Assembly: GCA_029448655.1 (NCBI GenBank)
Contig: JACCLO010000003.1
Location: 2,046,001-2,110,000, forward strand
Source of the DNA: Wolfiporia cocos
Taxonomy: Eukaryota > Basidiomycota > Agaricomycetes > Polyporales > Phaeolaceae
Reading direction: 5' to 3'
DNA length: 64,000 bases
A program made the translations under genes and the position numbers. The notes under the pieces are model-generated. The model worked only from the letters and a program-made list of their open reading frames with translations, did not search any database and was not told the DNA's origin. This document shows, in pieces, positions 28,336-63,669 of this stretch (positions are counted from its first letter, which is position 1; each line of letters opens with the position of its first letter).

Positions 28336-28708
28336 TGACACAAGCAACACTTCAAGCAACGACTCAGGGGATTGTTACTCGCGTTTCAGCGCAATCCTAG
28401 TCTGAGGCTACTCAAGGCGTATAAGGCCAAGACGAGTCTGGGGTGCTACCCTGCTCGTCGGCCAGTATATATGCTATTGTACTGTTTGTACACTGTTTGG
28501 CTACTGTATAGTTATTACGTAAGCTGAGAGTCCGATATTATGGTAAACCCTATAATGGGTATAAGTACACGGCACAGAGTGTCCGGGGGGCTGGTAACAC
28601 GTGATAGGGTGTTCGGGGTCTTGCACGTGACTGCTTAGGCGCGCGCTTAGATAAGATAAGGGTTCAGGCTCTAGTCACTAGCTAGGCGAAAGAAATCGGC
28701 TTGTGACA
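28336..28708 (-). repeat. 3' LTR of element 1
   Basis: It is 373 bp, TGTCACAAGCC to TTGCTTGTGTCA on the minus strand, and identical by eye to 37,967-38,339. The gag-pol stop codon lies inside this LTR. Confidence 0.95.
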
Positions 28709-31700
28709 GTACCCCCTCTTCTAGCTGCGTGTCCCCGCGCCCAGCAATTACTTTGCAGAAGTTTTGGTCAACGTGACATGGGTGGTCGTGTTCGTGTTTT
28801 TGGCAGATGTGCGGGTTTGCCATCTGTATGGTATACTGTACGGGATAGATCCAGCCCGGGTTGTTGGGTATCGTGGATTCTATGCATTGTCCCACTTGTA
28901 TTCCATATTGTACTACACGACTTTTGGGATTACAAAACCAGAAGTTCCTGGCGACGAGTTGTTTTGGGTAGATATAGAAGGGAATTTTCGCATCCTTCAG
29001 TAATTCGATATCTACGTCGTCGTGGATGATGAACTCGTTCGGGTTTTGTCTGAGTCCCATGGCGATGGCTTTCTTCTCGAAGTTTTCCCACTCCGGGTCC
29101 CACTCAGTGTGTCTGTTTTTCCACTGGTGGCCTGGAGCGGTTGGTCTTTCTTTGAAGTACTTGGTTACCAAATCCTGCCAGGGAGTCAATCCGCGTTTCC
29201 TTTCCCATGTCGTTGTCCCATCAGACCATTCAACTTCCAGCTCGACTCGCCCTCGGTCTTCCCTGGATGCGAGGATCCTGAGAGGCCTGCGAGCGTCATT
29301 GCCTTCCGTTCGTTCGTTATGGTCTTGATTGGGGAAAGCCGGAGCATGATACGGTAGTAGTAGGACTTCGTTAAATACGGGGTATATGCCTCGCATGTCT
29401 GCGGGCAAGTCCAGTTCGTATGCTCCATGTCCGACTTTCTTGGTGACCTTGTACGGACTGTACCGCTTTGAATCGAGTTTCTTCGTAGGGTTTCCCATGT
29501 TAATGTTTCGCCCATCGACCCAAACCATGTCCCCTTCGTTGTACTCGTGGGGGTTGGTTCGTTTCCGGTCGTAGTATTCTTTCATACGAAGTTTGGCTTT
29601 CTCGAGATTCTTCGAAGCGGTTTGGCTGACCTCGTGCATGTGTTCGACCCAGTCCTTGGCCGTTCCCACCCCCTCTTCCAGCTCTGGTGCCTCCACGCCT
29701 GTAAATGGGTGGTATCCGTGAGTGAGGTAAAAGGGGCTGTAGCCCGTGCTACTATGTACATGACATTTGTACGCAAATGCTGCTAGCGGGAGTAAGTCCG
29801 GCCAGTTGGTATGGGTGTCGTTAATAAATAGTCGTAGGTACACCTCCAGTTCCTGGTTCATTCGTTCCGTCTGCCCATCTGTTTGTGGGTGGAACGCGGT
29901 ACTGGGGTTTCCCTCGATGCCTAATCTACGGTATACATCTTTGATGAAGTCCGATACAAACTGTGGTCCTCTGTCGCTAAATACTTTCTTTGGTAGTCCG
30001 TGTTGTGCATATACTTTATCTACAAATATGTTGGCCCAACCTTCGGCTGTAAGCCTGGTTGTGGTTGGGACTGCGATATAGTCCTTGGATTTCATATCTA
30101 CAACTACAATAATAGCGTCCCGACCCTTGGATACTGGGAGTCCCGTGATCATATCGACGGAAATGTTCTCCCAGTTGTGTGTGGGTGTTGGATTCGGGTT
30201 CAGTGGTGCGGCTCTCTTCGAGCGGTCTGGCTTGGCTCTTTGGCACTTGATACATGCCTTGACGTACTGGCGGATGTCGTTTCGCATCTTTGGCCACCAG
30301 TATGATTGATGAATGGCGGTGTACGTGTTTTCAGTGCCGGGGTGTCCTGCCGAGACCGTGTCGTGGAATGAAGAAATGATTTTTCCGATTAATTCCTCGT
30401 CTCTCGGAATGATCAACTTTCCCCTCCTGTAGCGTAGGCCGTCCTCGGCCGTTTCCACTGATCCTTCTACTACCTCCTTGTCGTAGAGAGCGGCTTCTGC
30501 TTTGACTCTTTCTTTTACCTCCTCGTGGGTGATTCCGTGAGGTAGGGTGTAGAACGAGGATCTTAGCCTTTCTGCGCTGTCTTTGGCGAAGAGGTGTTCC
30601 TTCAAGACGATCTGTCCTTCGAGGTGATTTTTGTTGTCGTCGTGATCGCCTCGTCGGGATAGGCCGTCTGCCCTTCCATTGGTCTTCCCGGGGATGTGCA
30701 TGAGTTGTAGGTCATACTCGGCGAGTTCCGTCATCCACCGGGCTTGTCGCGGATTAATCTTTTGTGGGGTCTTAAAGTATTCTAAATTCTTGTGGTCCGT
30801 CAGTACTTCTACAGGGTGTTTTGCACCCATTACAAAATGCCGCCATTCGTCTAGGGCGCGCATTATAGCCAGTAGTTCGCGATCGTAAATCTCGTAGTTT
30901 CGTTCTGCCGGTAGTAGCGTCTTTGAGTGGTACGCTATGGGTTTCCAGATGCCGTCTTGATTCTGCATGAGGCAGGCTCCGGTTGCGAAGTCCGAAGAGT
31001 CTGCTTCGATGCGGAACGGGTCGTCATCGTTTGGTATCCCTAGTACAGGTGCTGTGACAAAGATGTTTTTTAACTTGTCAAAGCATTCCTGTTCTGTCAC
31101 GCCCCATTGCCATTCTCCATCTTTGGTTAGATTGATAAGGGGGCGTGCTACCGTTGAGAACTTGGGTATGAATCTCCGGTAGAAGTTGGCAAATCCGATG
31201 AAGGATTGCACTTCTTTCTTGTTCCGAGGTGCCGGCCATTCGGCTACTGCGGCGACCTTCGCGGGGTCCATGCGGATTTCCCCATGAGAGATTATGTGCC
31301 CTAGGTACTCTACTTCGGATTTCTCGAACTCGCACTTTTCTGGTTTACAGGTTAGCTTATTTTGACGGAGAACCAAAAGAACCTTGCGCAGGATCTCTCT
31401 ATGTTCTTTCTGGTTCTCCATAAAAATAAGGATATCGTCCAAATATACAATGACCTTCCCCGTGAGGACTAGGTCTCTAAATATGTCGTTCATCAAGGTC
31501 TGGAACGTGCCTGGTGCGTTGCACATTCCGAAGAACATCACTAATGGCTCGTAGAGCCCTCTATTAGTGATGAAGGCGGCTTTTTCTTCGTCGCCTTCCT
31601 TGATTCGGACGTTGGTGTATCCCCAACGAATGTCCAATTTGGAAAAGTACTTAGCGCGTTTAAGCTTGTTGAGCAGCTCCGTGATGAGCGGGAGCGGGTA

Positions 31701-34700
31701 CTTGTTCTTCTTGGTCATCTGGTTCAACTTTCGATAGTCCTGGATAGGGCGTAGTTTCCCATCCTTCTTTTTGACAAAGAAGAAGGGTGCCCCCCATGGT
31801 GACTTCGATGGGCGGATGCGGCCCGTGCGCAGTTGTTCTTCTAGGAAATCGTCCAATGCTTCTTGTTCTCTAGGTGAAAGGGCGTAGATCTTGCCCGCGT
31901 ATGGTTCCGAATTGGGGAGTAGTTCGATGGCGTGGTCCCACGGTCGCCGTTCCGGGAGTGTGTCGAATTCCTTTTCCTCAAACACGTCTTTGAATTCGTG
32001 CAAGTACTCGGGTACGACTTCCTCGAATGTTTTGGCTTCCGTGGTTTTGCCCGTCGCGATGGCGATTTCGGTTGCCTTCGTGGCGCGGACTCGTTCGGCG
32101 ATGTCCGCTCTGCACTCGTCCCTGTTTCGGATCCATGCGTCAGCGAAAATATAATAGATATGATCACCGTCCTCGATCTGCTCGTGTTCGCAGTCACAAG
32201 AGAACGTGATCCGTCGCTTCTTCCAATCAATGGAAGGGTTATGGTCTTCGAGCCAGTCGAAGCCTAAAAAGATGTCCGCGGAGCTAAGTTCCGTAACGTG
32301 GAACTTGCGGGTTTCCAAGTGCGTGTCGATCTGCATTTGGAGTTCGACGTAGTGCGTCATGAGCCCCATGCTGTTGGTCGATCCGTCCGCGTTGAACAGC
32401 TTGATAGGGCGGTCCAATGGGATCTGCTCGAGTCGGTGTTCCTCCACGTAGGACTTACTGATCACCGATCCAGTGGAACCGGAGTCGATGAGAGCCTTTG
32501 TGAAGAGGGCACGTCCGTCTGGGCGGTGGAGAGTGATCGGTACTTCGATCTGCTTTCCCCGTTTTCCCGTCTGGATGACCACTACACTTCCCCTGAGTTT
32601 TTCACCAGTTGAACCGAAACCCTGTGTTCCTCGCGTGGTTTCGCGGATTGACTTGACAATCTTGGTGTTGGGTGTCATATTGCATTCGAGTATGAACTGG
32701 GCGATTCTGTCCCCGTACTCGACCTGATAATCTGCTCCAGTCTGATTATTCAGTATGACTTTTACTCGGCCGGTGTAGTCTTCGTCTACTACACCGCCTT
32801 CCACGTCGACTCCCTTGAGGGCGAGTCCGGATCGTGGGGCGATACGTCCGTATACATCGGCTGGCATCCTGATCTTGATGCCAGTGTCTACGGTGACACG
32901 TTTCCCATTAGGAACAACGACCTCCTCCGCAGAGTAGAGGTCGTACCCAGCGGCACCTTCGCTTTTGCGCTCAGGTGGGATTGCCCGTGGGTGATCTAGG
33001 TATATGTCGAGCGTGACCGTCCTCTTCTTGACGCGTCTACGCCGCATTTTCTTTTCTGATTTCTTAGTGGCACCTGATGCGTCTGCCATTTCCACATCAG
33101 GTGTCACTACCGGGTCCACATCCATTGGAACATATGTTACATTAGCTTTGGAGGAATTAAGCACGGTATTTGCCTCCCGCCACGCTCCAGTGGGAGGCGC
33201 CTCCAAGGCTGTTACAAACGAGTCGTCGGAGCATGTTGAAGCTCCGTCGTCGTCATCTATGTCCGATTCTACAGATGCGCGATGTACAGATACTGATTCT
33301 AATATCGGGGCCCCGGTCCCTAGCCCATATAGTCCATCCACCGGTTCGTCGTTCTCCGTGGCAGCCGAGTCACTTTTTTTGGAGTTTACTGGTTCTTCTA
33401 CTTCCAATACTGAAAAGCGATTCGAGGGGGAGGGACTTACCTGAGTGGGTGCGAACCCGGCTTCCTTCGCGGCGTCAGGGTTCTCCTTGGCCCAGGCGGC
33501 CACCATTCGGACAAAGTCCTCCTGGGGGATCTCGCTAAGGACCGTGGGAGCGTCATTCCCTTCAATAGCCTGCCGGGTTCGCTGTGTTCCGGATCCACTG
33601 GCGGCGGGGGTGGTGTTGGTCTTGGGCCGCCAGTTCGGTTGGTGCCAGGATGTCTTGGTGCATCCCTTACCAGGTGCCTCGGCCTGCGTCTTGCTGCAAG
33701 AGTGGCACTTCCTCTTGAGCAGGTTTGCCCTTTCTTCCGCAGTTGGCTCCGCTCGGGGAGCGCGCTCGGGCTTAGCACGCTCCTTGCCCTTGTCCGTGGT
33801 ATTCCTGCCGCTCCGCAGTTTTTCCTCGTCCCGGAGTCGACGCATCGCATTGTCGGTCCGGAGGATGGCCTGTTTCCATGACTCGTAATCCTCCGGGATC
33901 TGGACGTTATACCCACGCTGCGACTTGTCGTTGACGGTGGCGGCGACGAACGCTTGGTGAACCGAGGAATAAATGTCTTTGGGGATGGCCCTGGTGACCC
34001 AGCTATGGACCACCTGGTTCTCCCGGTCGTATTTGGCTTCTCCCAGGAGTCGTTCCAGCTCCTGGAAGTATTCCTCGCCTTTACCGAGCGTCATGGTGAG
34101 GCGCTCTGCCGCTACCGCTGCCTTTTTCTCCAGGTCCGGGTCGTCGAACTTTTGGTGCAGCTCCCAGACGAACCGTTGCCAGCTGACCCTCCATTGTCCT
34201 CCCAGGTAGTGTTCCCTGGTGAACGCCGTTACCCATGAGTCGACCTTGGGACCGCGGATCAGCGAGATCGCCGCGCCCACCTTCTTTGAGTCGGTGAAGA
34301 GGATGGGGGTGTTGTCGTCGATGTAGAGCTGAAGCCGCATGTACCAGTCCGTGAATCCGGTGCCAGTGAAGGCTTCCAGTTCCCTGACTTTGGACTTGTA
34401 CCGGGGGTCGGGCCGTGGCTCGGGCAGTACCGAATAGGCGTCCCATTGCGACGATGCCGGTTTCATTGGCCTCCACATAGACGCACGAGTTCCCTGGAGA
34501 GGCGCGGCTCCCCAGGTGTTCACGGGCGCGTTCTGTGTTGGCACTGGGTTACCGAATATGTCGTATGGCGGGCGGGCTGCCTGGGCGAAGCTGTCGGGGC
34601 GGACGGGTGCTGGGGCCGTAAGTACCGGTGGCGTGTAGCCGGGCAGGAATGGGTTCGTCTGCCGGGAGTTTCCACGAGTCGGGGGAGTGGGGAGAGGTCG

Positions 34701-35303
34701 GGATCCGCGCGGTGTCCGCTGGGGGGAGTGCATGTGCACCGATCGAACCCAGTTTTCTACTGGACGGAACCTGCTTTCTGCGACCGAGACGGGGGTCCTG
34801 ACGGGGGGTGGTGCCTGGCTATGGAGTGACGCTGCGTCTCCGGCTTGGAGGGCGTCTGCCTGCAACCGTTGTGCCTCCCGGAGGAACCGTGCTCCCATTT
34901 CCTGCGACCATGTTCCTACCGCTACCATTGCTTGTACAACCTGTTGGCACCGTGCGCCAAAGTCTGCCGCCGTGGGGTTGGGCGGGAATGCCCATTGGAG
35001 AGCCAGCGGTGAGTTGATGTGACCCAGCTGGCTTCCGCCCCGAACTGTAGCCGACTGGTTCTGGGCGAGGGCGAAAGCCTGGTTGTAGAACTCTTCCGGC
35101 GGTACTCGGTTGGGCGCGAAGGTTCGGACCGAGGGGAGGTAGCTGTGTCCGGCTACGGTGCCATCCTCTACCGGGGCTACTTCGACGGGAGGCGGGGCAT
35201 GCATACTGTCTTGTACGGACATGCGCCCGAAGTCCTCGAAGAAGGCTTCGGCCAAGGGGTCGGGGGTGTGGAGCGAAAAGGCCGGGGTTTGTTGGCCGGA
35301 CAT
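28671..35303 (-). CDS. Element 1 Gag-dUTPase-PR-RT-RH-IN polyprotein, 2,210 aa
   Basis: One uninterrupted frame from ATG 35,303. Gag covers about residues 1-640 with a Cys/His-poor nucleocapsid (CHSC near 540). dUTPase (about 762-900) has all five motifs: AAGYDLYSAEE, APRSGLALKG, GVVDEDYTGRV, GDRIAQFI and RGTQGFGSTGE. Protease LIDSGSTGSVI is near 936. Reverse transcriptase has KDGKLRPIQDYRKLN and YLDDIL near 1,287, with RNase H EADSSDFATGA near 1,431. Integrase has an HHCC finger (1,650-1,690) and DDE segments (VDMITGLP, FSDRGPQF, ERMNQE). A chromodomain-like segment (about 2,008-2,050) is followed by a unique Cys/His-rich tail. The frame runs through the polypurine tract into the 3' LTR. Gag and Pol have no frameshift between them, so their ratio must be set after translation. 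Confidence 0.95.
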   Translation of the reverse strand: MSGQQTPAFSLHTPDPLAEAFFEDFGRMSVQDSMHAPPPVEVAPVEDGTVAGHSYLPSVRTFAPNRVPPEEFYNQAFALAQNQSATVRGGSQLGHINSPLALQWAFPPNPTAADFGARCQQVVQAMVAVGTWSQEMGARFLREAQRLQADALQAGDAASLHSQAPPPVRTPVSVAESRFRPVENWVRSVHMHSPQRTPRGSRPLPTPPTRGNSRQTNPFLPGYTPPVLTAPAPVRPDSFAQAARPPYDIFGNPVPTQNAPVNTWGAAPLQGTRASMWRPMKPASSQWDAYSVLPEPRPDPRYKSKVRELEAFTGTGFTDWYMRLQLYIDDNTPILFTDSKKVGAAISLIRGPKVDSWVTAFTREHYLGGQWRVSWQRFVWELHQKFDDPDLEKKAAVAAERLTMTLGKGEEYFQELERLLGEAKYDRENQVVHSWVTRAIPKDIYSSVHQAFVAATVNDKSQRGYNVQIPEDYESWKQAILRTDNAMRRLRDEEKLRSGRNTTDKGKERAKPERAPRAEPTAEERANLLKRKCHSCSKTQAEAPGKGCTKTSWHQPNWRPKTNTTPAASGSGTQRTRQAIEGNDAPTVLSEIPQEDFVRMVAAWAKENPDAAKEAGFAPTQVSPSPSNRFSVLEVEEPVNSKKSDSAATENDEPVDGLYGLGTGAPILESVSVHRASVESDIDDDDGASTCSDDSFVTALEAPPTGAWREANTVLNSSKANVTYVPMDVDPVVTPDVEMADASGATKKSEKKMRRRRVKKRTVTLDIYLDHPRAIPPERKSEGAAGYDLYSAEEVVVPNGKRVTVDTGIKIRMPADVYGRIAPRSGLALKGVDVEGGVVDEDYTGRVKVILNNQTGADYQVEYGDRIAQFILECNMTPNTKIVKSIRETTRGTQGFGSTGEKLRGSVVVIQTGKRGKQIEVPITLHRPDGRALFTKALIDSGSTGSVISKSYVEEHRLEQIPLDRPIKLFNADGSTNSMGLMTHYVELQMQIDTHLETRKFHVTELSSADIFLGFDWLEDHNPSIDWKKRRITFSCDCEHEQIEDGDHIYYIFADAWIRNRDECRADIAERVRATKATEIAIATGKTTEAKTFEEVVPEYLHEFKDVFEEKEFDTLPERRPWDHAIELLPNSEPYAGKIYALSPREQEALDDFLEEQLRTGRIRPSKSPWGAPFFFVKKKDGKLRPIQDYRKLNQMTKKNKYPLPLITELLNKLKRAKYFSKLDIRWGYTNVRIKEGDEEKAAFITNRGLYEPLVMFFGMCNAPGTFQTLMNDIFRDLVLTGKVIVYLDDILIFMENQKEHREILRKVLLVLRQNKLTCKPEKCEFEKSEVEYLGHIISHGEIRMDPAKVAAVAEWPAPRNKKEVQSFIGFANFYRRFIPKFSTVARPLINLTKDGEWQWGVTEQECFDKLKNIFVTAPVLGIPNDDDPFRIEADSSDFATGACLMQNQDGIWKPIAYHSKTLLPAERNYEIYDRELLAIMRALDEWRHFVMGAKHPVEVLTDHKNLEYFKTPQKINPRQARWMTELAEYDLQLMHIPGKTNGRADGLSRRGDHDDNKNHLEGQIVLKEHLFAKDSAERLRSSFYTLPHGITHEEVKERVKAEAALYDKEVVEGSVETAEDGLRYRRGKLIIPRDEELIGKIISSFHDTVSAGHPGTENTYTAIHQSYWWPKMRNDIRQYVKACIKCQRAKPDRSKRAAPLNPNPTPTHNWENISVDMITGLPVSKGRDAIIVVVDMKSKDYIAVPTTTRLTAEGWANIFVDKVYAQHGLPKKVFSDRGPQFVSDFIKDVYRRLGIEGNPSTAFHPQTDGQTERMNQELEVYLRLFINDTHTNWPDLLPLAAFAYKCHVHSSTGYSPFYLTHGYHPFTGVEAPELEEGVGTAKDWVEHMHEVSQTASKNLEKAKLRMKEYYDRKRTNPHEYNEGDMVWVDGRNINMGNPTKKLDSKRYSPYKVTKKVGHGAYELDLPADMRGIYPVFNEVLLLPYHAPAFPNQDHNERTEGNDARRPLRILASREDRGRVELEVEWSDGTTTWERKRGLTPWQDLVTKYFKERPTAPGHQWKNRHTEWDPEWENFEKKAIAMGLRQNPNEFIIHDDVDIELLKDAKIPFYIYPKQLVARNFWFCNPKSRVVQYGIQVGQCIESTIPNNPGWIYPVQYTIQMANPHICQKHEHDHPCHVDQNFCKVIAGRGDTQLEEGVLSQADFFRLASD
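28709..28722 (-). other. Polypurine tract of element 1
   Basis: Minus-strand AGAAGAGGGGGTAC directly precedes the 3' LTR and would prime second-strand synthesis. Confidence 0.8.
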
Positions 35304-35986
35304 TACGTATGTAGAAATGAAAGTTATGTATGAAAAGTGTAGTCACGATTTAGACCGCTACCTGCCCACTGTGGCGCCTCCGAAGAGCTATTGGGGTGGT
35401 AACTAGAAAGTCTTAATCCACTACAAACTGCGTCCACCTCTTTTCGGAGATGTGCCAAGAAACGCTAAGGGGTTTTCTTCCCAAAGCCGGCGAGAAAACG
35501 CAGCCTCCGAAACCTCGTCCAGCCCTGAAGCTAATTCAGGATACCGGGGGCACGGGAACTATCCGCCTATGTGGTGGGGCGTGTAAAAGTTCTACCGTAT
35601 GGCGGCAAGTGCCGGTACAGTATTAGGCGATTTCCTGCCTCTTCAGCCGCGGGTTACGCGCTGGGTTGTATAGTAACGGGGGCACGGTAATGTGCGTATC
35701 GTGGGGCAGTAAGGCCCGTAAATAGACGACCAGTGCCTCTGTACACTGCCACAGGGCCCCTTAACGCCTTTGACTATTACGCGTCGGGTGCACAGTTACT
35801 GTGGTGGGATTGTAACCCAAGACCTTTACGACCGCGTTGCACGGTGTTGGTCCAGTAGCTTAGAAGCAACGGCAGGAGAGGTCCCCTGCACGCTGTTCGC
35901 GAGATTCCCCCAGAACTCTAATCCCTTAACCCTGGGATGTGGCGGGTATGGAAACCAATCACGTGCTCGGAGAACCGAAGTTCAAC
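35304..35986 (-). other. 5' leader of element 1 (gag-proximal part)
   Basis: Non-coding leader between the nested element and the gag ATG; it aligns with window positions 1-780. The LTR-proximal part continues at 37,878-37,954. Confidence 0.7.
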
Positions 35987-36578
35987 TGTCACGGATGTGC
36001 CCAGGGGGTCACCGTACGTCCCTCACTATTGGTTGTATGGGCGGCGCTAGGCGTACGCCGCTCCGCTACTCCTTGGTTACCTCCACGTCGCACTCAGAGT
36101 ATATAGATCACCTGACCGCCTGGTTAGCGCTGTAGGGTAGCGCGCGCCTCAGGTACGGACACACTACGGTCACACTAGTTACATCGTTACCAGTAGTTAC
36201 ATATCATGTGTCCTCTTACATAATGTGCGCACAGGCCATTAGTTTAGGGCGGCCATTACTGGCCAGCTACAGATGTATAAGTACGGCGGATGGTGGCCTT
36301 ACAGCCCCATCCTTAAGATTCTCGTCAATGCACGTATGTGCCTCTCTTGCTAAACCCTGTGTGACTCTCTGGCCCGGGGCCTCTATCGCGTCTGCCTAGT
36401 CTGTGGGTCAGCGACTGCGTCGTCTGCGGGACCTTAGGTGGCGGGACACCTTAGGGATGGGCCTTTGAGTCCACTTAGGGTTGGCCGTATGAGTACGTCG
36501 CCGCCGTTGGCTTACGTCTATACAGGCGTGTAGGGATCCCCCTGAGCCCAGGGGTAGCACAGAGGCAAGTCTGTGACA
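35987..36578 (+). repeat. 5' LTR of nested element
   Basis: It starts TGTCACGGATG and ends GTCTGTGACA. TATAAG at 36,276 is 33 bases before the presumed transcript start ATCCTTAAGATT. Confidence 0.92.
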
Positions 36579-37285
36579 TAATCTTAAGGATAGTTTACCT
36601 CCCCTCCGGCGCGAACTGCGTTGGGGCCGAGGGTTTTCCACCTACAGGTCGCCATGGCAATGCGGCGGGGCAGCCGTCGGTAGAAGCACCGACGGTCCGT
36701 ACTTTTACGAGCCCCCACGAAGCATTACACCAGGCAAAGCGGCCGTAGGGAGTGAATAATCAAGACCGCCCCCTTTGAACCAAGGTAGCAGGGATCGACC
36801 GGTGTAAGCCGCGTCTGATGCCTTCCGTCTGCTGACCCCGCGGGGTTGTAGTATGAGTACGGAGGCTAGCGCATCGACGGCCATTATCCCTGGGCGGCAG
36901 GCACGACAACAAGAACTTTGACCGGTGGGTATGCGAAGGAACCCGCAAGGGTCTCCAACCCCACACCGACGGTCTCCAAGGCTAGATTATATCAAGATAC
37001 GACCGACTATCGAACACGACGAGGACGCGAGTAGGCAAGCGGAGGCACACGGGGACGACGGGGACCCCACTTAAAAAATAACCCAGTAACCTTTGCGACG
37101 AATGCCGAACCGATACCGAAAGCGCCTCCTTCACTCCACCACCGGCGGACGGACCGTGCCCTCGGGGGCTCCCCATCTTCCGCGAAGAAGGAATGGGCCG
37201 TGGGTTAAACATGAAACCAAGGAAGTGAGTGTCGTAGTTTTCTAGATAGAACGTCAGAGACGACGTTTTTTGAGAGGGGGGGTAA

Positions 37286-37877
37286 TGTCACGGATGTGCC
37301 CAGGGGGTCACCGTACGTCCCTCACTATTGGTTGTATGGGCGGCGCTAGGCGTACGCCGCTCCGCTACTCCTTGGTTACCTCCACGTCGCACTCAGAGTA
37401 TATAGATCACCTGACCGCCTGGTTAGCGCTGTAGGGTAGCGCGCGCCTCAGGTACGGACACACTACGGTCACACTAGTTACATCGTTACCAGTAGTTACA
37501 TATCATGTGTCCTCTTACATAATGTGCGCACAGGCCATTAGTTTAGGGCGGCCATTACTGGCCAGCTACAGATGTATAAGTACGGCGGATGGTGGCCTTA
37601 CAGCCCCATCCTTAAGATTCTCGTCAATGCACGTATGTGCCTCTCTTGCTAAACCCTGTGTGACTCTCTGGCCCGGGGCCTCTATCGCGTCTGCCTAGTC
37701 TGTGGGTCAGCGACTGCGTCGTCTGCGGGACCTTAGGTGGCGGGACACCTTAGGGATGGGCCTTTGAGTCCACTTAGGGTTGGCCGTATGAGTACGTCGC
37801 CGCCGTTGGCTTACGTCTATACAGGCGTGTAGGGATCCCCCTGAGCCCAGGGGTAGCACAGAGGCAAGTCTGTGACA
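37286..37877 (+). repeat. 3' LTR of nested element
   Basis: Same length and sequence by eye as the 5' copy. Confidence 0.92.
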
Positions 37878-37954
37878 TCAACAAGAGCGAAAGAAAGGTG
37901 CACTTTGCCCCTAGTGCGCCGGGGTTGTGTAGGGTAAACCGCTACACGGGGTGG

Positions 37955-37966
37955 AGACTCGTCTTA
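37955..37966 (-). other. Self-priming primer binding site of element 1
   Basis: Sense-strand TAAGACGAGTCT directly follows the 5' LTR. Its last 11 bases complement AGACTCGTCTT in the LTR (plus coordinates 38,060-38,070), which sits about 33 bases after the LTR TATATA. Confidence 0.8.
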
Positions 37967-38339
37967 TGACACAAGCAACACTTCAAGCAACGACTCAGGG
38001 GATTGTTACTCGCGTTTCAGCGCAATCCTAGTCTGAGGCTACTCAAGGCGTATAAGGCCAAGACGAGTCTGGGGTGCTACCCTGCTCGTCGGCCAGTATA
38101 TATGCTATTGTACTGTTTGTACACTGTTTGGCTACTGTATAGTTATTACGTAAGCTGAGAGTCCGATATTATGGTAAACCCTATAATGGGTATAAGTACA
38201 CGGCACAGAGTGTCCGGGGGGCTGGTAACACGTGATAGGGTGTTCGGGGTCTTGCACGTGACTGCTTAGGCGCGCGCTTAGATAAGATAAGGGTTCAGGC
38301 TCTAGTCACTAGCTAGGCGAAAGAAATCGGCTTGTGACA
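37967..38339 (-). repeat. 5' LTR of element 1
   Basis: 373 bp, identical by eye to the 3' LTR; followed by the target duplication TTCTA. Confidence 0.95.
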
Positions 38340-46340: not shown

Positions 46341-46342
46341 TA

Positions 46343-46353
46343 AGAACAAATCT
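46343..46353 (+). other. Self-priming primer binding site of element 2
   Basis: AGAACAAATCT, two bases inside the 5' LTR boundary, is the exact complement of AGATTTGTTCT in the LTR. No tRNA 3'-end complement (TGG start) is present. Confidence 0.8.
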
Positions 46354-47360
46354 CCCCCTACCCCCGCCCTTGCGCTTGCGCTTGGGCCTGGGTTTCTATC
46401 CTACAGGGGCTATTACTCGTTGCTGCGCACATCCCTACTCTTGACAAAGAGTTAGGGGTGATAGTTGAGATCTGGGGGATACATCGCCATCCTCGGCAGA
46501 GGATTGGCAACCAGGGAAGCCACACCGCCTTTTTAGGCAGGAGACCTACCTAACCCGGACTCCAGGGTCAAGGAGACATGGTCCTCGCTGACAAGCTTGG
46601 ACTATGCGCGGTTAAGACCCACCTGTGGAAAAAAGGGGACGGTCTGCCTGTGTGCGCCCAACCCCCTGTCATGGCAAGCGTTGTTCAGCGCCCCATCACT
46701 ATCCACAGGGTCATCATTATGATGGCATGGGAATTTTCCAAAGCCGCCGCCCAGGCGTAAGGGCCCTGCTTTGAACCCGTCATGGGAAAAGCAGTGAGGG
46801 GGATCATCTTCGGATAATCCTGCCAAAGGACAAGTGCGATAGCCACAAAACATAAGTCCTCCGGGCAGTTCGGCGTGCACGTCATGGGGTCAAATAGGGC
46901 AAAGGGGTACACTTGCGCGCCTTAGGGCTAATCCACTTACCTGTGGACGCGATGGTATTCCAATGTCCTGAAAAAGTCCCCGTGATAGTCTGTAGACGGC
47001 AACCTCATTGTTGAAGCATGGACAGGCTAAGGGGTGTAAAATCCCAGCCACTTTCCGGCATCGTCCCTCCGGGGCGGTGTCGTGTATCCGAATCCCAATC
47101 ATCTGACCCAGGAACCGGCCTGGCAGTCAGCAACTCTACCCCTGGAGTCGGCGCCTCTGACCGTTAGGGTCATGCGAATATCCGCGCCGTCTCGGCACAG
47201 GGTTTGCGCGCAACATAAGAGTAATTATGCCCCGTAGTACACCTTCTTTGCTCCTGAAAAGGAGTCCACTACCCTACCTTACATAATCCCTTTTATTCCT
47301 GTTCTTGGACGTATCACTGGGAAACTTCGTTTCTCATGAAAGCTGCACTTTCTTAGAATC

Positions 47361-48260: not shown

Positions 48261-48404
48261 TAGAAATACTATCATCTTTTAACTCTGAAATAGAGTGCGA
48301 GTGTGATCTATAACGAAAGTTGCAGCTTTCAAACCCAATCCCTTCTTAAGAATCTAAGACAATGAGTACCCGGAAACTAACATTCGTCACAAACAGATTC
48401 ACAA

Positions 48405-54879: not shown

Positions 54880-54905
54880 TCGTTCCATTAGGGACAATGA
54901 AACCT

Positions 54906-54918
54906 GAAGAGGGGGTAA
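54906..54918 (+). other. Polypurine tract of element 2
   Basis: GAAGAGGGGGTAA directly before the 3' LTR. Confidence 0.85.
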
Positions 54919-55617
54919 TGTCACAGATTTGGGACATGCCACTATTTTTCCCGTATTTTTACCTATTTATCTGGTATTTCTACGACCTTGTAGACATTTA
55001 CGCTGCTAAGCACCCGTCTACACGTACACGCAACCAAACAACACGTACACAACGCGGTATACGTCCACTCGTCATAACAACACGTACATAACACGCTTGT
55101 ACGCGTCAATGACTCAGCGGACTAACCTCCGGTGTCACGCGCTTTACTCATATCCCGATACCGGGCTATGTCAGTACGATTGGATAAGCGGCCCGCTCGT
55201 TATCACATGCCAATGCCCTTACGATTACTCATATCCCGATGCCGGTATATAAGAATCACATGCATGGCTTACTAACGTAGTTACAGCCACTTCCACAACA
55301 TGGACCTACGGTCCAAACAAACGATCTTACTGGTGCGGCCATTACCGGCGCACATGGTCTATTGTAGTTTACGACTTAACCATATTAGTTATGTCTGCGC
55401 ACAGACCACCTTCATGTTTGGCTCCCTTACCGGTAACCAAACAAAGCATGTATATAAGTAGGGCTATCACTGCGGATAAGCCTTAGATTTGTTCTCTGCA
55501 TTCGCACAGTTACATATCATCTCTGCTTGCGCCCACTAGCCTCCTCACCAACCTCCAGCAACTCCTTCAAGTCGCTTATTAGGTTACAGTGTGAGTCCCA
55601 CAGTCTAGTCTGTGTCA
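54919..55617 (+). repeat. 3' LTR of element 2
   Basis: 699 bp, same termini and length as the 5' LTR, with one difference noted. Confidence 0.95.
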
Positions 55618-56865: not shown

Positions 56866-57563
56866 TGTTACGGGTCGAATACCCGTTCGTATATTCGAGT
56901 CGCGAATATAGATCGTTATTCTGCACGTAGGCACGTCGCCGTATGCAAGGCAAATACTCGTTAGATGCCTTCAAGTCCTAAGTGAAGTCCTTAGGAGATC
57001 GGTTAATATCCAATACGCGTTAGAGGATATAATCTGTTCAGGTGCGAGTCGAATAGAATATAAGACTCGCCTAAGTCCGAGAAGTCAGTGTGCACTTCGA
57101 GGACTTAGTCGTTCGGTTGCTCGAGTGAGAAATACTGAGCATAGTTTCCTATGTTTGAGAACGAGTATAAGACTTCTTGTTTGTACAACAAGGTCGAGCT
57201 GAAGAGCCTCGACGGTAAGTACATGCGTTTTATACTACGCTAGGTTTCAGGGGTCAAGTCTGTCCCAGATGCCACCGATACTATCTACGCTATAGTCCCA
57301 AACGTTTGATAAGTATGGAGTGATATATCTGAGACGATAGATAGGAATGATGGCGGTTGAACGCCATCTATCAGCTAGTAAACGATGAACGTGAAACGGT
57401 GGCAGGGTTGGATCTGCCAAAGATGAAACGAGCCCTACAGACTAGTACAACTGGGGATGCGCCCAGTAAGGTCATGAGTGGCCAGGGGAGTTGGTTGCAC
57501 AACAATTCCCTGTATCGTATTCGCCTAGTGGTGAGTTCTGTCGATGTTAAAATAACCGTAACA
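56866..57563 (-). repeat. 3' LTR of element 4
   Basis: 698 bp with TGTTACGG / CCGTAACA ends, closely similar to the solo LTR at 7,022-7,729. Confidence 0.93.
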
Positions 57564-57617
57564 TCAGCCCCTCCTTAAGCATTTGTCGGCCTCGACAAAT
57601 TTTCCAAGTTCCCCTCT

Positions 57618-58631
57618 TCAGAGTGCCTCGGCGTCCTGTTCGTTGTGGATGTCGCCATTCCCACTGAGGGACAGGGTCGTAGGAGTTCGCCATACGAAGT
57701 GTTGGCGGCATTCATTCTGTCGATGACCTGGTTGATTGAGCCCACAAGTTCTGCAAATATAATCGGGGCAGTCGAGGATCCAATGGTTAGCGGAACCACA
57801 TTGTCGACACGGCTGCTCGGGTGAGTGTTGGTACCTCCAGTGGTGTGCGGCTCGGTGGAGGTTTCGTGCAGCCCATGTTGGTAGGGAGGCGGTGTCTCGT
57901 TCATGCTCCCTCGCACCTCGCTCAAACTCCTTGCGGGTAATACTCTGCACTGAAGGAGATCGTCGAATAGGCGGCGTGCTATTCGCTCTTCGCTGTCGCG
58001 CTGGGGTAGCCCTAGGGCTCGTCGGGCGTGCAGGTGGTTCACGTCTCCCGTTGCCTCCCATACCAGGAATACGTGGCGTCGGGTCTCTAACTCCTGTTCG
58101 GCGGGCTCTCTGAGTCTCGGTAGGCAACGGAAATAATACTCTATCGCCCTCCATAAAATCAAACGGCCTTGCAACTCGGCGTCGTTCGTCGGGGGTGAAA
58201 AAGCAGGCGGGTCGCAATGTGTATTCGGGTCGACTGGGAGTAGCGTGCTCACGATCCTCGAAGTCGTTGAGCGCATGTCGTAGTTGGGCCGTTGTGGTGG
58301 CGGCCAATCTGTCGATAAGTCTGTCGGTGAGTAGCTCGAGTCCCTCTCTCTGCGCTCTGATCTGCCCCTCCATTCGGACGAGGTCCTCGGTGATGTTCTG
58401 GTACGAGCTGTAGACGTGGGTGAGATCCTGCGCGATGTCGAAGAGGGCCGACCAGCCATCGGCTCGGCCAGCAAAAGGTCCCTCGGCCCTGTACCAGAGG
58501 AGGGCGTGTCTAATCTGCAGATGCTGGGGGGAGTACCTTCTTGTTGGCGTACCTCGCGGTCGGCCTTCTCGACGGTCTGCATCGCCGGGGGTCGTGGTAC
58601 GGCGGGGGAGTTGGTGGCGAGTCGTCGACAT
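57618..58631 (-). CDS. Element 4 3' ORF with two zinc knuckles, about 337 aa
   Basis: The frame extends upstream to 58,799; the ATG at 58,631 (MSTTRHQLPRR) is the likelier start after the chromodomain. A helical region (DLTHVYSSYQNITEDLVRM) and an Arg/Pro-rich middle precede a C-terminal pair of knuckles: CRQCGSANHWILDC (C-X2-C-X4-H-X4-C) and CRTCGLNQPGHRQNEC (C-X2-C-X6-H-X4-C). The knuckles indicate nucleic-acid binding. The role in the element is unknown; a second nucleocapsid-like or accessory protein is a reasonable guess. It overlaps, in another frame, a long open tail of the pol reading frame (to 57,575). Confidence 0.7.
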   Translation of the reverse strand: MSTTRHQLPRRTTTPGDADRREGRPRGTPTRRYSPQHLQIRHALLWYRAEGPFAGRADGWSALFDIAQDLTHVYSSYQNITEDLVRMEGQIRAQREGLELLTDRLIDRLAATTTAQLRHALNDFEDREHATPSRPEYTLRPACFFTPDERRRVARPFDFMEGDRVLFPLPTETQRARRTGVRDPTPRIPGMGGNGRREPPARPTSPRATPARQRRANSTPPIRRSPSVQSITRKEFERGAREHERDTASLPTWAARNLHRAAHHWRYQHSPEQPCRQCGSANHWILDCPDYICRTCGLNQPGHRQNECRQHFVWRTPTTLSLSGNGDIHNEQDAEAL

Positions 58632-61600
58632 ACTATTACTGTCCTGTTTTCGAGTGTTGGGGTTGTCCTGACTCTCGTTCTGTGGTAGTCTTTTATCAGC
58701 TCCTTGGAGTGCTCCAAGTTTGCTTCGTCTTCCCATGAATTGTCGGCCGTGGCATAGCCTTTCCACTTGACGAAGTATTGATGCTTCTTTCCTTTCCATC
58801 TGTCAGCCAAGATGGCTTCGACCTCGTATTCTTCCTGTCCCTTGATGATATCAGGTGGCGGCCGTAAGTAATTGGGTCCGTGCACCCTTGTTTCTTTGAA
58901 TGGTTTTAGTAAGGCGGCGTGGAATACCAGATGAACTTTCCAGCTCGTTGGTAACTGCAGCCGGTATGTCGTGGGTCCCATCTTTTCTGTGATAGTGAAG
59001 GGTCCTTCTCTTTTTGGTGCCAGCTTGTTAGATTCGTAGGGGATTGTTAGGTTCTTTGCGTCGAGCCAGACCTTGTCCCCTTTCTCAAGCTTCGGTAGTT
59101 CTCTGAGGAACCGTCCTGCCATTCTTTTCTGGGCTAATTCATGCGCGATGAATGCCATCTTTCGCGCCTCTTTGATCTTCTTGATCCTGTCGACAGCTGC
59201 CGGGACGTTCCCTACTCGGTCATAGTCTGGGAATCCTCTCGGGACATATCCTTCGAGTGGCGCTGGCCGGTTTTCGGTTCGTCTGGTGTTGTGCGCAAAT
59301 TCGACGTCAGGCAGTCGTTGTACCCATTGGAACGGGTCGTTCATGCAATAGATGCGAAGGTATACTTCGATCTGTTGATTCATTCTTTCTGTCTGTCCGT
59401 CGGTCTGTGGATGGTACGCCGTACTCATTGCTGATTCTGTTCCCTGCAGCTTGCATAATTCCTTGAAAAGCTTTGATGCAAACTGCGGTCCTCTGTCTGA
59501 AATGATCTTTCGGGGGATGCCATATAGCGAGTAGATTTTTCGGTGAAATATCTCTGCCGCCCCTTCGCTAGTGATCGTTTTGTCGCATGGGGTGAGAGAG
59601 ATGGCCTTGGATAGGCCATGGTCGACAATCACCATCATGGAGTCATACTTTCCGACTCTTGGCAGGTCGGTGACAAAATCGACCAAGCACTGTGAGAAGG
59701 GGAGGGCGTCTTCCCGTGTCGGTATTGGCTGCAAAGGGGGTTTCAGTGGATTCCTATCAGGTTTCATCTGTTGACAGATTGCACAGCCCCGGATGTATTC
59801 CGCTATCATTGTTCTCATGTCAGGCCACCAAAAGTGGGTCGTAATCTGTACTGTTGTACCCCAGATCCCAGGGTGTCTGGCCGGGATCGTGTCGTGGTAT
59901 TTTGAGATGACGTCCTGTCGAAGGCCCTCGTCCCTTGGCACGTACATCCTGCCTCTGTAGAGTAGTATCCCATCCGTTTGTTGATTCATCTGCGGTGGTT
60001 CTTGCGGGGAATTCGCCTGTGCCCCCTAGAGCACGGATCGCCTGTTCCGCAGATTCATCTCGATCGTTGGCATTCTTGATTCGATCGATGATCGGGATCT
60101 GGATTGCGTGGACGACGAGTTCATCTGGAATCATGGTGATTCCCTCGTTGTCTTCGTTGCTTTCGTCCAGGTGGTACAACCTGGAAAGCGTGTCGGCCAT
60201 GACTAATTTTCTTCCTGGGACGTGCTGCAATTTTAGGTCGAATTGCGAAAGGAATAGATGCCATCTCGCTTGTCGCCGATTTAGGCGCTGTGCGCTTCTC
60301 CAGTACGTCAGGTTCTGATGATCGCTTCGGATCAAGATCCGATGCGGTGCTCCTTCCAATAGGTGTCGCCATTCTTCTAATGCTCGGACTATTCCGAGTA
60401 GTTCGCGATCGTAGATTTCGTAGTTCCGTTCTGTTGGTGTCAGGGATTGTGAGAGATATCCCACCGGCCATTCGTGCCCTGTTTCATCTGTCTGTTTTAG
60501 TACTGCTCCTGTGGCGAACTGAGATGCGTCTGTTTTGAGGATGAACGGTTTCTCCTTGTCTGGTGTTCCCAGTGCGGGCGCCGTCGTGAATGCTTTCTTC
60601 ATGAATTCGAATGCTTTCTGTTCTTTCTCCGTCCATTGGAACCCTGTCCCTGTGACCGTTTTTGTGAGGTCTACCAAGGGTCGGGCGTGCGTAGAGTAGT
60701 GATCGATAAATTTCCGATAAAAAAAGTTCGCAAATCCTAGGAAGGATCTGACTTCTTTGAGATTTCGGGGAGTCGGCCACTCCTTAACCCATTGAGTTTC
60801 ACTGGGTCCATCTGGATATTTCCTGGGGTGATGACTAGTCCCAGAAATTCGACTCTGTCGACACCGAAGGCGCATTTCTCGGGTTTCACAAAGAGATGGT
60901 TATCCACCAATCTCTGAAGGATCCGCCGTTCCCGTTCCTTGTGTACTTTCTCGTCTTCTGAGAAAATGAGGATGTCGTCCATATAAACAAGCACCCATCC
61001 TTCGAGGATTTCTTCTTTCAGGATTTCGTTCATCATTGCTTGGAAGGTCCCGGGTGCATTGCACAATCCGAAAAACATAACCGTGGGCTCGTACAACCCT
61101 CGGTTTGTTTTGAAGGCCGCTTTCCATTCGTCTCCTTTTTTGATTCGCACGTTGTTGTATCCCGCTCCAAGGTCCATTTTTGTGAGTATCTTTGCTCCTG
61201 TTAGCTTTTCCAGGAGTTCTGAGATCAGTGGCAAGGGATAGACGTTCTTTATCGTCCCTTCGTTCAGATATCGATAATCTTGACAGGGTCGTAGGCCTCT
61301 GTCCTTCTTTGGGACGAAAAAGAATGGTGACGCCATCGGGGATTTCGAAGGGACTATGAATCCCTTGGCCAAGTTTTCTTTTAGGAATTCGTCCAGCGCC
61401 TGTTGCTCTTTAGGCGAGAGTGCATAGACTTTGCAGTCTTTCGGCACGAAATCGGGTTTTAATTCGATTGCATGGTCCCATGGTCTCGACGGGGGGAACG
61501 CTGCTGCGGACTCCTTACTGAACACCTTGGCGAATTCGGGACCATCTCCTCAATCGTTCGTTCTGGTTTGAGGGTTTTCTGTGCGAATTCCTGGGATTTC

Positions 61601-61835
61601 GTCAGCGCTTTCCTGACAGCCTTGATGATTTGTATCTTCGTTCGGAACTTCTTCCGCGTCTCCCCTTTCTTTCCTATGATCCTAGGGTTATTTTTTGCGA
61701 AGCGTCGGATCGCTTCGTACTCCTCGGGAGTATAGAGCCGCTGCGCTGTTTCTTCTGGCTGGTCCGTGGATCCGAACCCTTTCTCCCCTCGTTCTGTTTC
61801 ATCTAGGTCTTCGACCTCTAAGATGTCGGGGGTGA

Positions 61836-62026
61836 TGTTACGGTCGCACGTAGAACCACTCACGTGCTATGCAAGGCATTTAGCCCCCTTCGCTAAAAGG
61901 GCGTAATCTCGCGGTTAGGCGAGACTGTGGTTCCAGGTATATATGCACGTCGCCAGTTGCCTAATTGGGTAACGGTTTCACACGCTTACCACTTCCCGTG
62001 GGCTCAGCCGTGTTAGACTCGTAACA
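61836..62026 (-). repeat. TRIM LTR copy 1
   Basis: 191 bp, TGTTACGGTCG to CTCGTAACA in plus orientation. Confidence 0.93.
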
Positions 62027-62249
62027 CTACCTCCCGCTTAAGGTGTGTGTTGTCCCCAACACGCTCTACCATCCCCCTCGATGGGCTCAAGCGCTTCGCC
62101 GTTGGAGACACCCCCAATTGGGCAGAGCAAGGTGCTCACATACCCAGCCCCCGAGCTACCGTTCACCGTTTATAAGCGCCTACTAGGTGTGCTCTCAGCC
62201 GCATGTCGACAACGGGAGTCGAACCTGCGACCGGGCAACCGCGAGATAC

Positions 62250-62440
62250 TGTTACGGTCGCACGTAGAACCACTCACGTGCTATGCAAGGCATTTAGCCC
62301 CCTTCGCTAAAAGGGCGTAATCTCGCGGTTAGGCGAGACTGTGGTTCCAGGTATATATGCACGTCGCCAGTTGCCTAATTGGGTAACGGTTTCACACGCT
62401 TACCACTTCCCGTGGGCTCAGCCGTGTTAGACTCGTAACA
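62250..62440 (-). repeat. TRIM LTR copy 2 (shared middle LTR)
   Basis: Identical by eye to copy 1. Confidence 0.93.
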
Positions 62441-62650
62441 CTACCTCCCGCTTAAGGTGTGTGTTGTCCCCAACACGCTCTACCATCCCCCTCGATGGGC
62501 TCAAGCGCTTCGCCGTTGGAGACACCCCCAATTGGGCAGAGCAAGGTGCTCACATACCCAGCCCCCGAGCTACCGTTCACCGTTTATAAGCGCCTACTAG
62601 GTGTGCTCTCAGCCGCATGTCGACAACGGGAGTCGAACCTGCGACCGGGC

Positions 62651-62661
62651 AACCGCGAGAT
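62651..62661 (-). other. Self-priming primer binding site of the TRIM
   Basis: Sense ATCTCGCGGTT, two bases from the LTR edge, is the exact complement of AACCGCGAGAT (plus coordinates 62,734-62,744). The same pair exists beside copy 2. Confidence 0.8.
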
Positions 62662-62663
62662 AC

Positions 62664-62854
62664 TGTTACGGTCGCACGTAGAACCACTCACGTGCTATGC
62701 AAGGCATTTAGCCCCCTTCGCTAAAAGGGCGTAATCTCGCGGTTAGGCAAGACTGTGGTTCCAGGTATATATGCACGTCGCCAGTTGCCTAATTGGGTAA
62801 CGGTTTCACACGCTTACCACTTCCCGTGGGCTCAGCCGTGTTAGACTCGTAACA
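62664..62854 (-). repeat. TRIM LTR copy 3
   Basis: One base differs from copies 1 and 2. It is the 5' LTR in sense orientation; TATATA is about 27 bases before AACCGCGAGAT. Confidence 0.93.
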
Positions 62855-63669
62855 GGTGAGGTGTCGTTCGAAGATTATCTGGGCTATTTGCATGCCCGGG
62901 ATAATTCTATGTGCTCTGTCTGAGTAGTTGAAGACGATGGCTCCGACGTCTCCCCGGTAGTCCGAGTCTATGATTCCGGCTTGTACTACTAATCCGTGTC
63001 TGAGGGTGTTGCCTGATCGTCCGGCCAGCCTTCCATATGATCCCTTCGGGATCTTCATTTTTACTCCTGTGGAGACGAGTTTCCATCCTCCGGCGGGAAT
63101 CTCGGTTTCTTCTACGGCGTAGAGGTCATACCCTGCAGCTTCTTGGGTCCCCCTTGTTGGAATTTTTCCTTCTGGGGCAACTACCATTTCTACCGTATCC
63201 ATTCGGATTGTGGCTTCCTGTTTCTTTTCTTCTGCCCCTAGTATTGATCGTACATCGACTGTTTGGTCCTTCCAATCGATTGTGGGGTTTTCGTCTTTCA
63301 ACCATCCATACCCTAGAATCATATTCTCTGTTCCGATTGATCCTACCAGGAATCGGACTTTTCGCGTTTTCTGGGTCTTTGGATATCGTAGTAGTATGGT
63401 GGCTTCTCGGTCTATTCGCCCATCTTTGTTTTCTGTTCCGTCAACATTTTTGACGATGATCGGGTTCTTCAAGGGTTGCGTGGGCACCTTGTATTTTTCT
63501 ACCACTCTGCTGTGGATCAGGTTCGACATTGCTCCTGAGTCGATTAGTGCATTGCACTTCACGGGTTTTGCCAGTGTCATGATTACCGGGATGAAGAGGG
63601 ATCGATTCTTCTCGAACGAGGTAATTACATGCGCTGCTTTCTCGGAGGGTAAGACCGTGGGCTTCCCTC

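What the first reader, a model, noticed from the sequence alone, without database searches (positions are those of the whole stretch)
28671..63665. Three Ty3 elements carry a dUTPase at three different places in the polyprotein
Seen: five-motif dUTPase domains at about 32,600-33,010 (between Gag and protease, element 1), 54,460-54,876 (C-terminus behind the chromodomain, element 2) and 61,770-63,150 (between protease and RT, element 4). Known: dUTPases sit in pro or pol of some retroviruses, and I recall dUTPase-bearing Ty3 elements reported from a basidiomycete, so presence alone is not new. Inference: three orders in one locus point to repeated independent capture or relocation of a dUTPase module, with selection to keep uracil out of cDNA.
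Basis: partly seen in the sequence, partly recalled or inferred. Interest (0 to 1): 0.9.

Follow-up and report, generated by a model that had tools for sequence, protein, structure and literature searches.

The report
Three retrotransposon families carrying built-in dUTPase
Three families of jumping elements in this fungus each carry a DNA-cleaning enzyme at a different place in their protein, an arrangement already reported from another wood-rot fungus in 2010.

Summary
Three Ty3 elements carry a dUTPase domain before the protease (element 1), behind the chromodomain (element 2) and between protease and RT (element 4). In element 4 a 1019-base miniature LTR element splits the domain before motif 5.

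The positions are traits of three separate families. Each family gave the capped 150 matches in the host genome; none of the 88 loci read shows another order. The domain is under purifying selection, in single pairs mostly weaker than on RT.

The same three positions and the idea of independent capture were published in 2010 for Postia placenta (PMC2864245), so the phenomenon is not new.

Only a single origin of all sampled Ty3 dUTPases is rejected (by AU, not by SH).

Added here: decayed C-terminal dUTPases in relatives, lineage-wide changes in element 4's motifs, and dUTPase at an RNase H-integrase junction and in Copia-type proteins.

The parts
28336..38339 (-). Element 1: Ty3 element with TG...CA ends and 5-base duplication TTCTA; LTRs about 28336-28708 and 37967-38339
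28671..35303 (-). Element 1 single ORF, 2210 aa: Gag region - dUTPase - protease - RT - RNase H - integrase
32604..32975 (-). Element 1 dUTPase domain, before the protease
   Evidence: E 7.2e-37
45642..55617 (+). Element 2: Ty3 chromovirus, TG...CA LTRs 45642-46340 and 54919-55617, 5-base duplication AGCAC
48405..50402 (+). Element 2 Gag-like ORF (weak Ty3 capsid and zinc-knuckle matches, below cut-off)
50344..54879 (+). Element 2 Pol ORF, 1511 aa: protease - RT - RNase H - integrase - chromodomain - dUTPase
54484..54873 (+). Element 2 dUTPase domain at the C-terminus behind the chromodomain
   Evidence: E 2.7e-32
56866..64000 (-). Element 4: degraded Ty3 chromovirus, LTR sequence from 56866, 5' end outside the window; order protease - dUTPase - RT - RNase H - integrase - chromodomain in broken frames
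62840..63169 (-). Element 4 dUTPase, 5' part with motifs 1-4 (the last bases of the Pfam match run into the insert)
   Evidence: E 8.6e-30
61836..62854 (-). Miniature LTR (TRIM-like) insert splitting the element 4 dUTPase; 3 LTRs of 191, 2 internals of 223, duplication TCACC
61770..61835 (-). Element 4 dUTPase, 3' part with motif 5, behind the insert (approximate end)

Best explanation
The window holds members of three separate Ty3 retrotransposon lineages of a basidiomycete, each of which has inherited its own dUTPase module at its own place in the polyprotein. Shown: the order, its constancy in the loci read, separate RT lineages, purifying selection in the families where it could be measured. 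Inferred: the domain, packed with RT in the particle, hydrolyses dUTP to dUMP so that little uracil enters the cDNA and repair enzymes do not destroy it. Because a polyprotein can be cut or tethered at many junctions, the module can work from several places. Origin: I think it more likely than not (about 0.65) that the three descend from at least two captures, but the sequence data do not prove it. Within the element 2 lineage the C-terminal dUTPase looks like one old acquisition followed by decay or loss in sister elements.
For: Orders by Pfam and in 88 loci: chromodomain-dUTPase in 33 of 34 element-2-type loci (1 shows dUTPase only); protease-dUTPase-RT in 38 of 44 element-4-type loci (5 protease-dUTPase, 1 dUTPase-RT); the same in 6 of 6 of a sister family; dUTPase-protease-RT in 2 of 2 element-1-type and 2 of 2 class B loci. 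The protease of element-4-type loci was found with the family's own sequence, so its identity rests on the weak Pfam matches. RT tree: three elements in different clades (node support not printed there; in the smaller RT trees, element 2 with the C-terminal carriers has 100, 100 and 77, element 4 with its sister 100 in all three). dN/dS of the dUTPase: 0.026 (class B pair), about 0.03 (four element 2 variants), 0.046 pooled over 20 unique element 4 copies against 0.048 for RT. All 6 dUTPase carriers among the 120 listed relatives of element 2 Pol (P0121, P0140, P0145, P0148, P0150, P0154) have it behind the chromodomain. Element 2, P0121, P0145, P0148, P0150 and P0154, 6 of 6, share a one-residue deletion seen in 5 of 116 sequences not labelled as elements; P0006 has it too but without known context, and P0140 has a larger gap there. 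Separate capture elsewhere: P0123 is 66-71% identical to named ascomycete dUTPases, P0122 62-64% to beetle ones (with names).
Against: Monophyly of the three dUTPases is not rejected (AU p 0.454; 0.447), nor is any pair by AU. In single pairs the dUTPase has a higher dN/dS than RT in 5 of 6 comparisons where both could be measured, and in element 1's own family only one non-synonymous and no synonymous change was seen. The deletion also occurs in elements 1 and class B but not in their Laetiporus relative, and in at least one of the 5 of 116 it may itself mark an element piece (P0002, 74% identical to P0150), so it is a weak marker. P0154 does not group with the other C-terminal domains in the best tree. 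Activity is untested and element 4's motifs are altered. Only 2 loci of element 1 type were read, and the loci are best hits, not a random sample.
Confidence: 0.72

Rival explanations
1. One capture in a common ancestor, followed by moves of the module to two new places in the polyprotein.
For: Monophyly of the three dUTPase clades is not rejected (AU p 0.454; 0.447); elements 1 and 2 share a one-residue deletion; element 2 scores equally against class B elements and the best other sequence outside its own clade, P0013 (127 bits each); with 11 taxa the dUTPase data do not reject the RT topology (p 0.0965).
Against: The best tree does not join the three; element 4 lacks the deletion; with 9 and 8 taxa the dUTPase data reject the RT topology at p 0.027 and 0.041, and the RT data reject the dUTPase topology in all three sets (p 1e-5 or less), though the dUTPase trees have low node support; two of four weighting tests (bp-RELL, c-ELW) put elements 1+2 as a pair outside the 95% set, while KH, SH and AU do not; many RT relatives of element 2 lack the domain.
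Confidence: 0.3
2. Three fully independent captures of host or other dUTPase genes.
For: Three clades with support 100 each; element 1's domain is only 44% and 41% identical to those of elements 2 and 4; independent capture is likely for other Ty3 elements (P0122, P0123; all Ty3 as one clade AU p 0.00014, 0.0026); the 2010 authors drew the same conclusion from an NJ tree that I could not see.
Against: No clade could be tied to a named donor; deep nodes unsupported; the host's own dUTPase gene was not recovered.
Confidence: 0.35
3. Misassembly or nested insertions create the different orders.
For: The region does hold nested insertions.
Against: Elements 1 and 2 have long open ORFs, near-identical LTRs and target duplications, and the same orders recur in the loci read.
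Confidence: 0.01
4. The dUTPase is a passenger without catalytic role, or has a changed role (element 4).
For: P0140 and P0145, relatives of element 2, carry decayed domains; many close relatives lack it; element 4 lineage lacks motif 2 Pro in 50 of 50 copies and the last Gly of motif 5 in 48 of 48 readable; single-pair dN/dS is mostly higher than for RT.
Against: dN/dS is still well below 1; motif 3 Asp-x-Asp-Tyr and motif 2 Arg-Ser are kept in elements 1, 2 and the element 4 type sequences checked.
Confidence: 0.15

Closest known systems
PosPlaTy3-3, PosPlaTy3-4, PosPlaTy3-5 of Postia placenta (Novikova et al. 2010, PMC2864245; passages, section 5)
   Same: Ty3 elements of a basidiomycete with dUTPase at the N-terminus of Pol, the C-terminus of Pol, and between PR and RT: the same three positions as elements 1, 2 and 4.
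   Different: Their sequences, figures and supplements were not available to me, so family identity is untested. Added here: copy numbers, selection, likelihood topology tests, decayed relatives.
dUTPase-containing Metaviridae of Phanerochaete chrysosporium (Novikova and Blinov 2008) and Tmt1 of Tuber (both known here only as cited in PMC2864245)
   Same: dUTPase in fungal Ty3 elements.
   Different: Not read; details not compared.
Juno, Vesta and TelKA of bdelloid rotifers (PMC5408684, passages read)
   Same: dUTPase between PR and RT, as in element 4.
   Different: Retrovirus-like animal elements in which that paper found no chromodomain.
[quoted passage not shown]
   Same: The same module occurs at several polyprotein positions.
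   Different: Vertebrate retroviruses; no membership claimed.

Membership tests
Ty3/Gypsy LTR retrotransposon | protease - RT - RNase H - integrase order | tested here: met
   for elements 1 and 2; element 4 in pieces of the same order, RT seen in the frame translations, protease match below Pfam cut-off
Ty3/Gypsy LTR retrotransposon | LTR pair with TG...CA ends and target duplication | tested here: met
   elements 1 and 2; element 4 has only one LTR in the window, so not tested for it
Chromovirus | chromodomain behind the integrase | tested here: inconclusive
   met in elements 2 and 4; no Pfam chromodomain in element 1 (SH3_Tf2-1 only)
Trimeric dUTPase family (PF00692) | profile match over nearly the whole domain | tested here: met
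   126.5, 111.7 and 103.6 bits against cut-off 22 (element 4 only positions 3-110 of 129)
Trimeric dUTPase family (PF00692) | five motifs with conserved key residues | tested here: inconclusive
   met in elements 1 and 2 (element 2 has Ser for Gly in motif 2); element 4 lineage lacks motif 2 Pro in 50 of 50 copies and the last Gly of motif 5 in 48 of 48 readable of 50; Met for Asp in motif 4 in 3 of 3 checked
Trimeric dUTPase family (PF00692) | dUTPase fold | tested here: met
   only for the element 4 type protein P0001: pLDDT 85.6, pTM 0.65; the 50 listed PDB matches are dUTPases, TM up to 0.89 by target; monomer only
Trimeric dUTPase family (PF00692) | dUTP hydrolysis | not testable with these tools
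   needs purified protein
PosPlaTy3-3/-4/-5 families | same dUTPase position | tested here: met
   against the text of PMC2864245
PosPlaTy3-3/-4/-5 families | 90-100% amino-acid identity (the paper's family criterion) | not testable with these tools
   Postia element sequences not available

The most novel reading that the evidence does not exclude
The element 4 lineage (protease-dUTPase-RT) carries a dUTPase whose motif 2 proline, motif 4 aspartate and motif 5 end glycine, nearly invariant in the sequences compared, are replaced in the copies read while the domain stays under purifying selection (pooled dN/dS 0.046). It may have been retuned for a role other than ordinary dUTP hydrolysis, for instance a structural or nucleotide-sensing role beside RT.
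Probability: 0.15. Interest if true: 0.55.

Novelty: new member of a known kind. Interest (0 to 1): 0.3.

Why it matters
One enzyme module is kept at three different junctions of related polyproteins in one genome, with at least 450 matched places in the assembly. That makes it a good system for asking whether a retroelement needs its own dUTPase and whether its place matters. The phenomenon itself was described in 2010. The added value is the test of its interpretation: 'independent capture' is not demonstrated by the dUTPase tree for these three families; I think because the domain is short.

Tried and rejected
Assembly artefact: rejected by open ORFs, near-identical LTRs, target duplications and recurring copies.

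Shared one-residue deletion and GG before motif 3 as proof that elements 1 and 2 share one dUTPase: dropped. GG is absent in class B and in P0006, and the deletion is absent in the Laetiporus relative P0003 and present in other sequences.

Host dUTPase gene of this genome: searched with a Suillus dUTPase, whole and C-terminal 76 residues. The 150 listed matches in each look element-type by identity (46-53% and 55-57%); none stood out as a host exon, and I did not check them one by one. So the tree has one named Agaricomycete dUTPase that I take as cellular (P0114). Laetiporus P0003/P0007 bear dUTPase names in NCBI; I count them as element-type because their similarity to element 1 goes on beyond the domain, which is inference. 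Many of the other sequences are unnamed metagenome ORFs that may be element pieces too.

Species: not identified. Protein matches point to Polyporales brown-rot fungi (Laetiporus, Wolfiporia), which is inference.

tRNA or Rfam identity of the miniature insert: none (on the whole window, one match at E 0.95 far below its cut-off). DNA match of the nested element in element 1 to element 2: none.

Rows dropped before counts: the 82-sequence dUTPase tree was thinned from 154 at 75% identity among the non-element sequences. The RT tree used 41 of 127 sequences. The AU set held 63 sequences, without Copia-type ones. P0140, with a decayed domain, was left out of the dUTPase trees. Pairs of unequal length were skipped in the pooled dN/dS.
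Full report
WHAT IS THERE. The window is a stretch of contig C23 of a 64.4-Mb genome in 76 contigs. Element 1 (minus strand, 28336-38339) has one ORF of 2210 aa with, by Pfam, dUTPase (777-900), protease (935-1035), RT (1177-1338), RNase H, integrase and SH3, behind a Gag region. Element 2 (plus strand, 45642-55617) has a Gag-like ORF and a 1511-aa Pol with protease, RT, RNase H, integrase, chromodomain (1247-1296) and dUTPase (1381-1510). Element 4 (minus strand) has a weak protease match, dUTPase, RT, RNase H, integrase and chromodomain, in broken frames. One coordinate needs correction: within 61,770-63,150, bases 61836-62854 are a miniature LTR element that splits the dUTPase before motif 5, with TG...CA ends, three 191-base LTRs, two 223-base internal parts and the duplication TCACC.

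NOT AN ARTEFACT. Elements 1 and 2 have LTR pairs identical at 375 of 375 and 698 of 699 aligned positions and 5-base duplications TTCTA and AGCAC. In the host genome, searches with the three domains each returned the capped 150 matches: element 2 type 150 of 150 at 100% identity, element 4 type 150 of 150 at 94% or more, element 1 type 150 of 150 at 86% or more. The three sets cannot overlap, since element 1's domain is only 44% and 41% identical to those of elements 2 and 4 (2 against 4 was not scored, but both sets are close to their own query). This is at least 450 places in the assembly; some lie on small contigs that may repeat one region. First-look candidates numbered 1342 to 1428 per dUTPase search, so the true number may be higher. 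Many element 2 type copies lie in a 1528-aa open frame.

POSITION IS A FAMILY TRAIT. In all 88 fetched loci I looked for the order of protease, dUTPase, RT and chromodomain. Element 2 type: chromodomain-dUTPase in 33 of 34, dUTPase alone in 1. Element 4 type: protease-dUTPase-RT in 38 of 44, protease-dUTPase in 5, dUTPase-RT in 1. A sister family of element 4: 6 of 6 protease-dUTPase-RT. Element 1 type 2 of 2, and a second family close to it ('class B', L003 and L008) 2 of 2, dUTPase-protease-RT. No locus showed another order. Limits: the loci are best-scoring hits, only 2 are of element 1 type, each reaches 1500 bases beyond the domain, and the protease of element 4 type was found with that family's own sequence.

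TREES. The dUTPase tree (82 sequences, 135 columns) gives three clades with support 100 each: element 1 with class B and Laetiporus P0003/P0007; element 2 with its variants, P0121 and Wolfiporia P0006; element 4 with its sister family and P0001. Their order is unresolved. The RT tree (41 sequences) places the three elements in different clades; the five C-terminal dUTPase carriers with a full RT (P0140, P0145, P0148, P0150, P0154) fall in the clade of element 2. Node support was not printed for that tree; for smaller ones.

Topology tests (63 sequences): elements 1+2+4 as one clade is not rejected (AU p 0.454 and 0.447); 1+2, 1+4 and 2+4 are not rejected by AU (0.311, 0.345, 0.542; 0.28, 0.406, 0.519), though two weighting measures (bp-RELL, c-ELW) put 1+2 outside the 95% set. 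C-terminal domains as one clade is not rejected (0.443; 0.5). Elements 1+2 with the C-terminal group is not rejected (0.285 with P0154, 0.545 without). All Ty3 dUTPases as one clade is rejected by AU (0.00014; 0.0026) and KH (0.0346), not by SH (0.0865; 0.0948). Against the RT topology, dUTPase data give p 0.0965 with 11 taxa, 0.027 with 9 and 0.041 with 8; RT data reject the dUTPase topology in all three sets (1.4e-7, 9e-6, 1.3e-6), whose dUTPase trees have low node support.

SELECTION AND MOTIFS. dN/dS of the dUTPase was 0.026 between two class B copies (28 synonymous, 3 other changes). Element 2 against four variants: 9 synonymous to 1 twice, 11 to 1, 20.5 to 2.5. Element 4 type pairs 0.15-0.27, its sister family 0.08 and 0.21. 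Pooled over 20 unique of 35 element 4 type copies 0.046 against 0.048 for RT (pairs not independent). Against a picture of equal constraint: in 5 of 6 single pairs where both were measured the dUTPase ratio was higher than RT's, and between families dN was about twice RT's (0.276 against 0.128; 0.260 against 0.109), with synonymous sites saturated or nearly so. Within element 1's own family the one pair had 0 synonymous and 1 other change in the dUTPase, so nothing can be said (all). Elements 1 and 2 keep the key motif residues checked. In the element 4 lineage motif 2 proline is absent in 50 of 50 copies read and the last glycine of motif 5 in 48 of 48 readable; the aspartate of motif 4 is methionine in 3 of 3 sequences checked. 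Motif 2 proline was found in 115 of 116 sequences not labelled as elements and motif 4 aspartate in 109 of 116; P0148 and P0136 also lack the proline. A model of the element 4 type protein P0001 has the dUTPase fold.

GAIN AND LOSS. In a search with element 2 Pol without its dUTPase (best 120 of 2148 listed), relatives with 56-63% identity are mixed: P0137, P0138, P0139 and others show no dUTPase, while P0140, P0145, P0148, P0150 and P0154 carry one behind the chromodomain. P0140 and P0145 have lost key motif residues. This fits one old acquisition with later decay; separate gains are not excluded. A long-protein search (16 hits) also gave P0122, a Ty3 protein with dUTPase between RNase H and integrase and 62-64% identical to beetle dUTPases; P0123, C-terminal, 66-71% identical to named ascomycete dUTPases; P0124 with dUTPase before RT; and 12 proteins with a Copia-type RT domain in the precomputed Pfam list (P0125-P0136; two rescanned, one of them just below Pfam's cut-off for that domain).

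KNOWN OR NEW. Novikova et al. 2010 (PMC2864245; passages, section 5) report dUTPase in Postia placenta Ty3 elements at the N-terminus of Pol, at its C-terminus and between PR and RT, and suggest independent acquisition. Their tree is in a supplement that I could not read. A 2017 paper (PMC5408684, passages) reports PR-RT dUTPase in rotifer elements. A 2015 review of retroviral dUTPases (PMC4531489, passages) does not contain the words retrotransposon, Ty3 or gypsy in its main text. So the finding is a further member of a known kind. My searches for prior work were made, in one open-licence library only.

MECHANISM. Inferred from established knowledge of dUTPases and retroviruses: hydrolysis of dUTP near RT lowers uracil in cDNA. 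The 2010 paper mentions replication in non-dividing cells as the reason assumed for viruses. Nothing here tests activity.

Noticed in passing
window 61836-62854 (-): TRIM-like insert with three LTRs and two internal parts whose internal part starts with a tRNA-like B box GGTTCGACTCC (likeness judged by eye). Helenus TRIMs (PMC10886601, abstract and outline only) have the tRNA-like part in the LTR; here it lies just behind the LTR.
   Followed up: partly
window 35987-37877: Second small LTR element nested between the 5' LTR and gag of element 1: repeats of about 592 bases, identical, 5-base duplication TCAAC, no DNA match to element 2.
   Followed up: partly
window 57618-58799 (-): ORF overlapping the 3' end of element 4 pol in another frame, with a weak zinc-knuckle match (E 0.0015, below cut-off).
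   Followed up: partly
window 47361-48260 (+): 299-aa ORF ahead of the Gag-like ORF of element 2, no Pfam match.
   Followed up: partly
protein P0001: Record named dUTP diphosphatase of Anoxybacillus flavithermus (622-base contig) is 96% identical to the element 4 type dUTPase: probably fungal DNA in a bacterial assembly.
   Followed up: partly
proteins P0125-P0136: Twelve long proteins with a Copia-type RT domain and a dUTPase. A paper search for dUTPase with copia found 15 papers, 12 listed; of these I had read passages of three (PMC2864245, PMC2774666, PMC5408684), for other terms.
   Followed up: partly
protein P0122: Ty3 protein without Pfam chromodomain, dUTPase between RNase H and integrase, dUTPase closest to animal ones among the named sequences.
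   Followed up: partly
contigs C10-C73 of G000: Element 4 type copies recur at the same coordinates on several small contigs, such as C35, C38, C43 or C36, C39, C44, as if these were copies of one region.
   Followed up: no
window 8897-9246: Direct repeats with 22-base spacing inside the minus-strand ORF 8704-9396.
   Followed up: no
window 7022-7697: Sequence 93.5% identical to the element 4 LTR stretch 56866-57540; whether it is a solo LTR was not checked.
   Followed up: no
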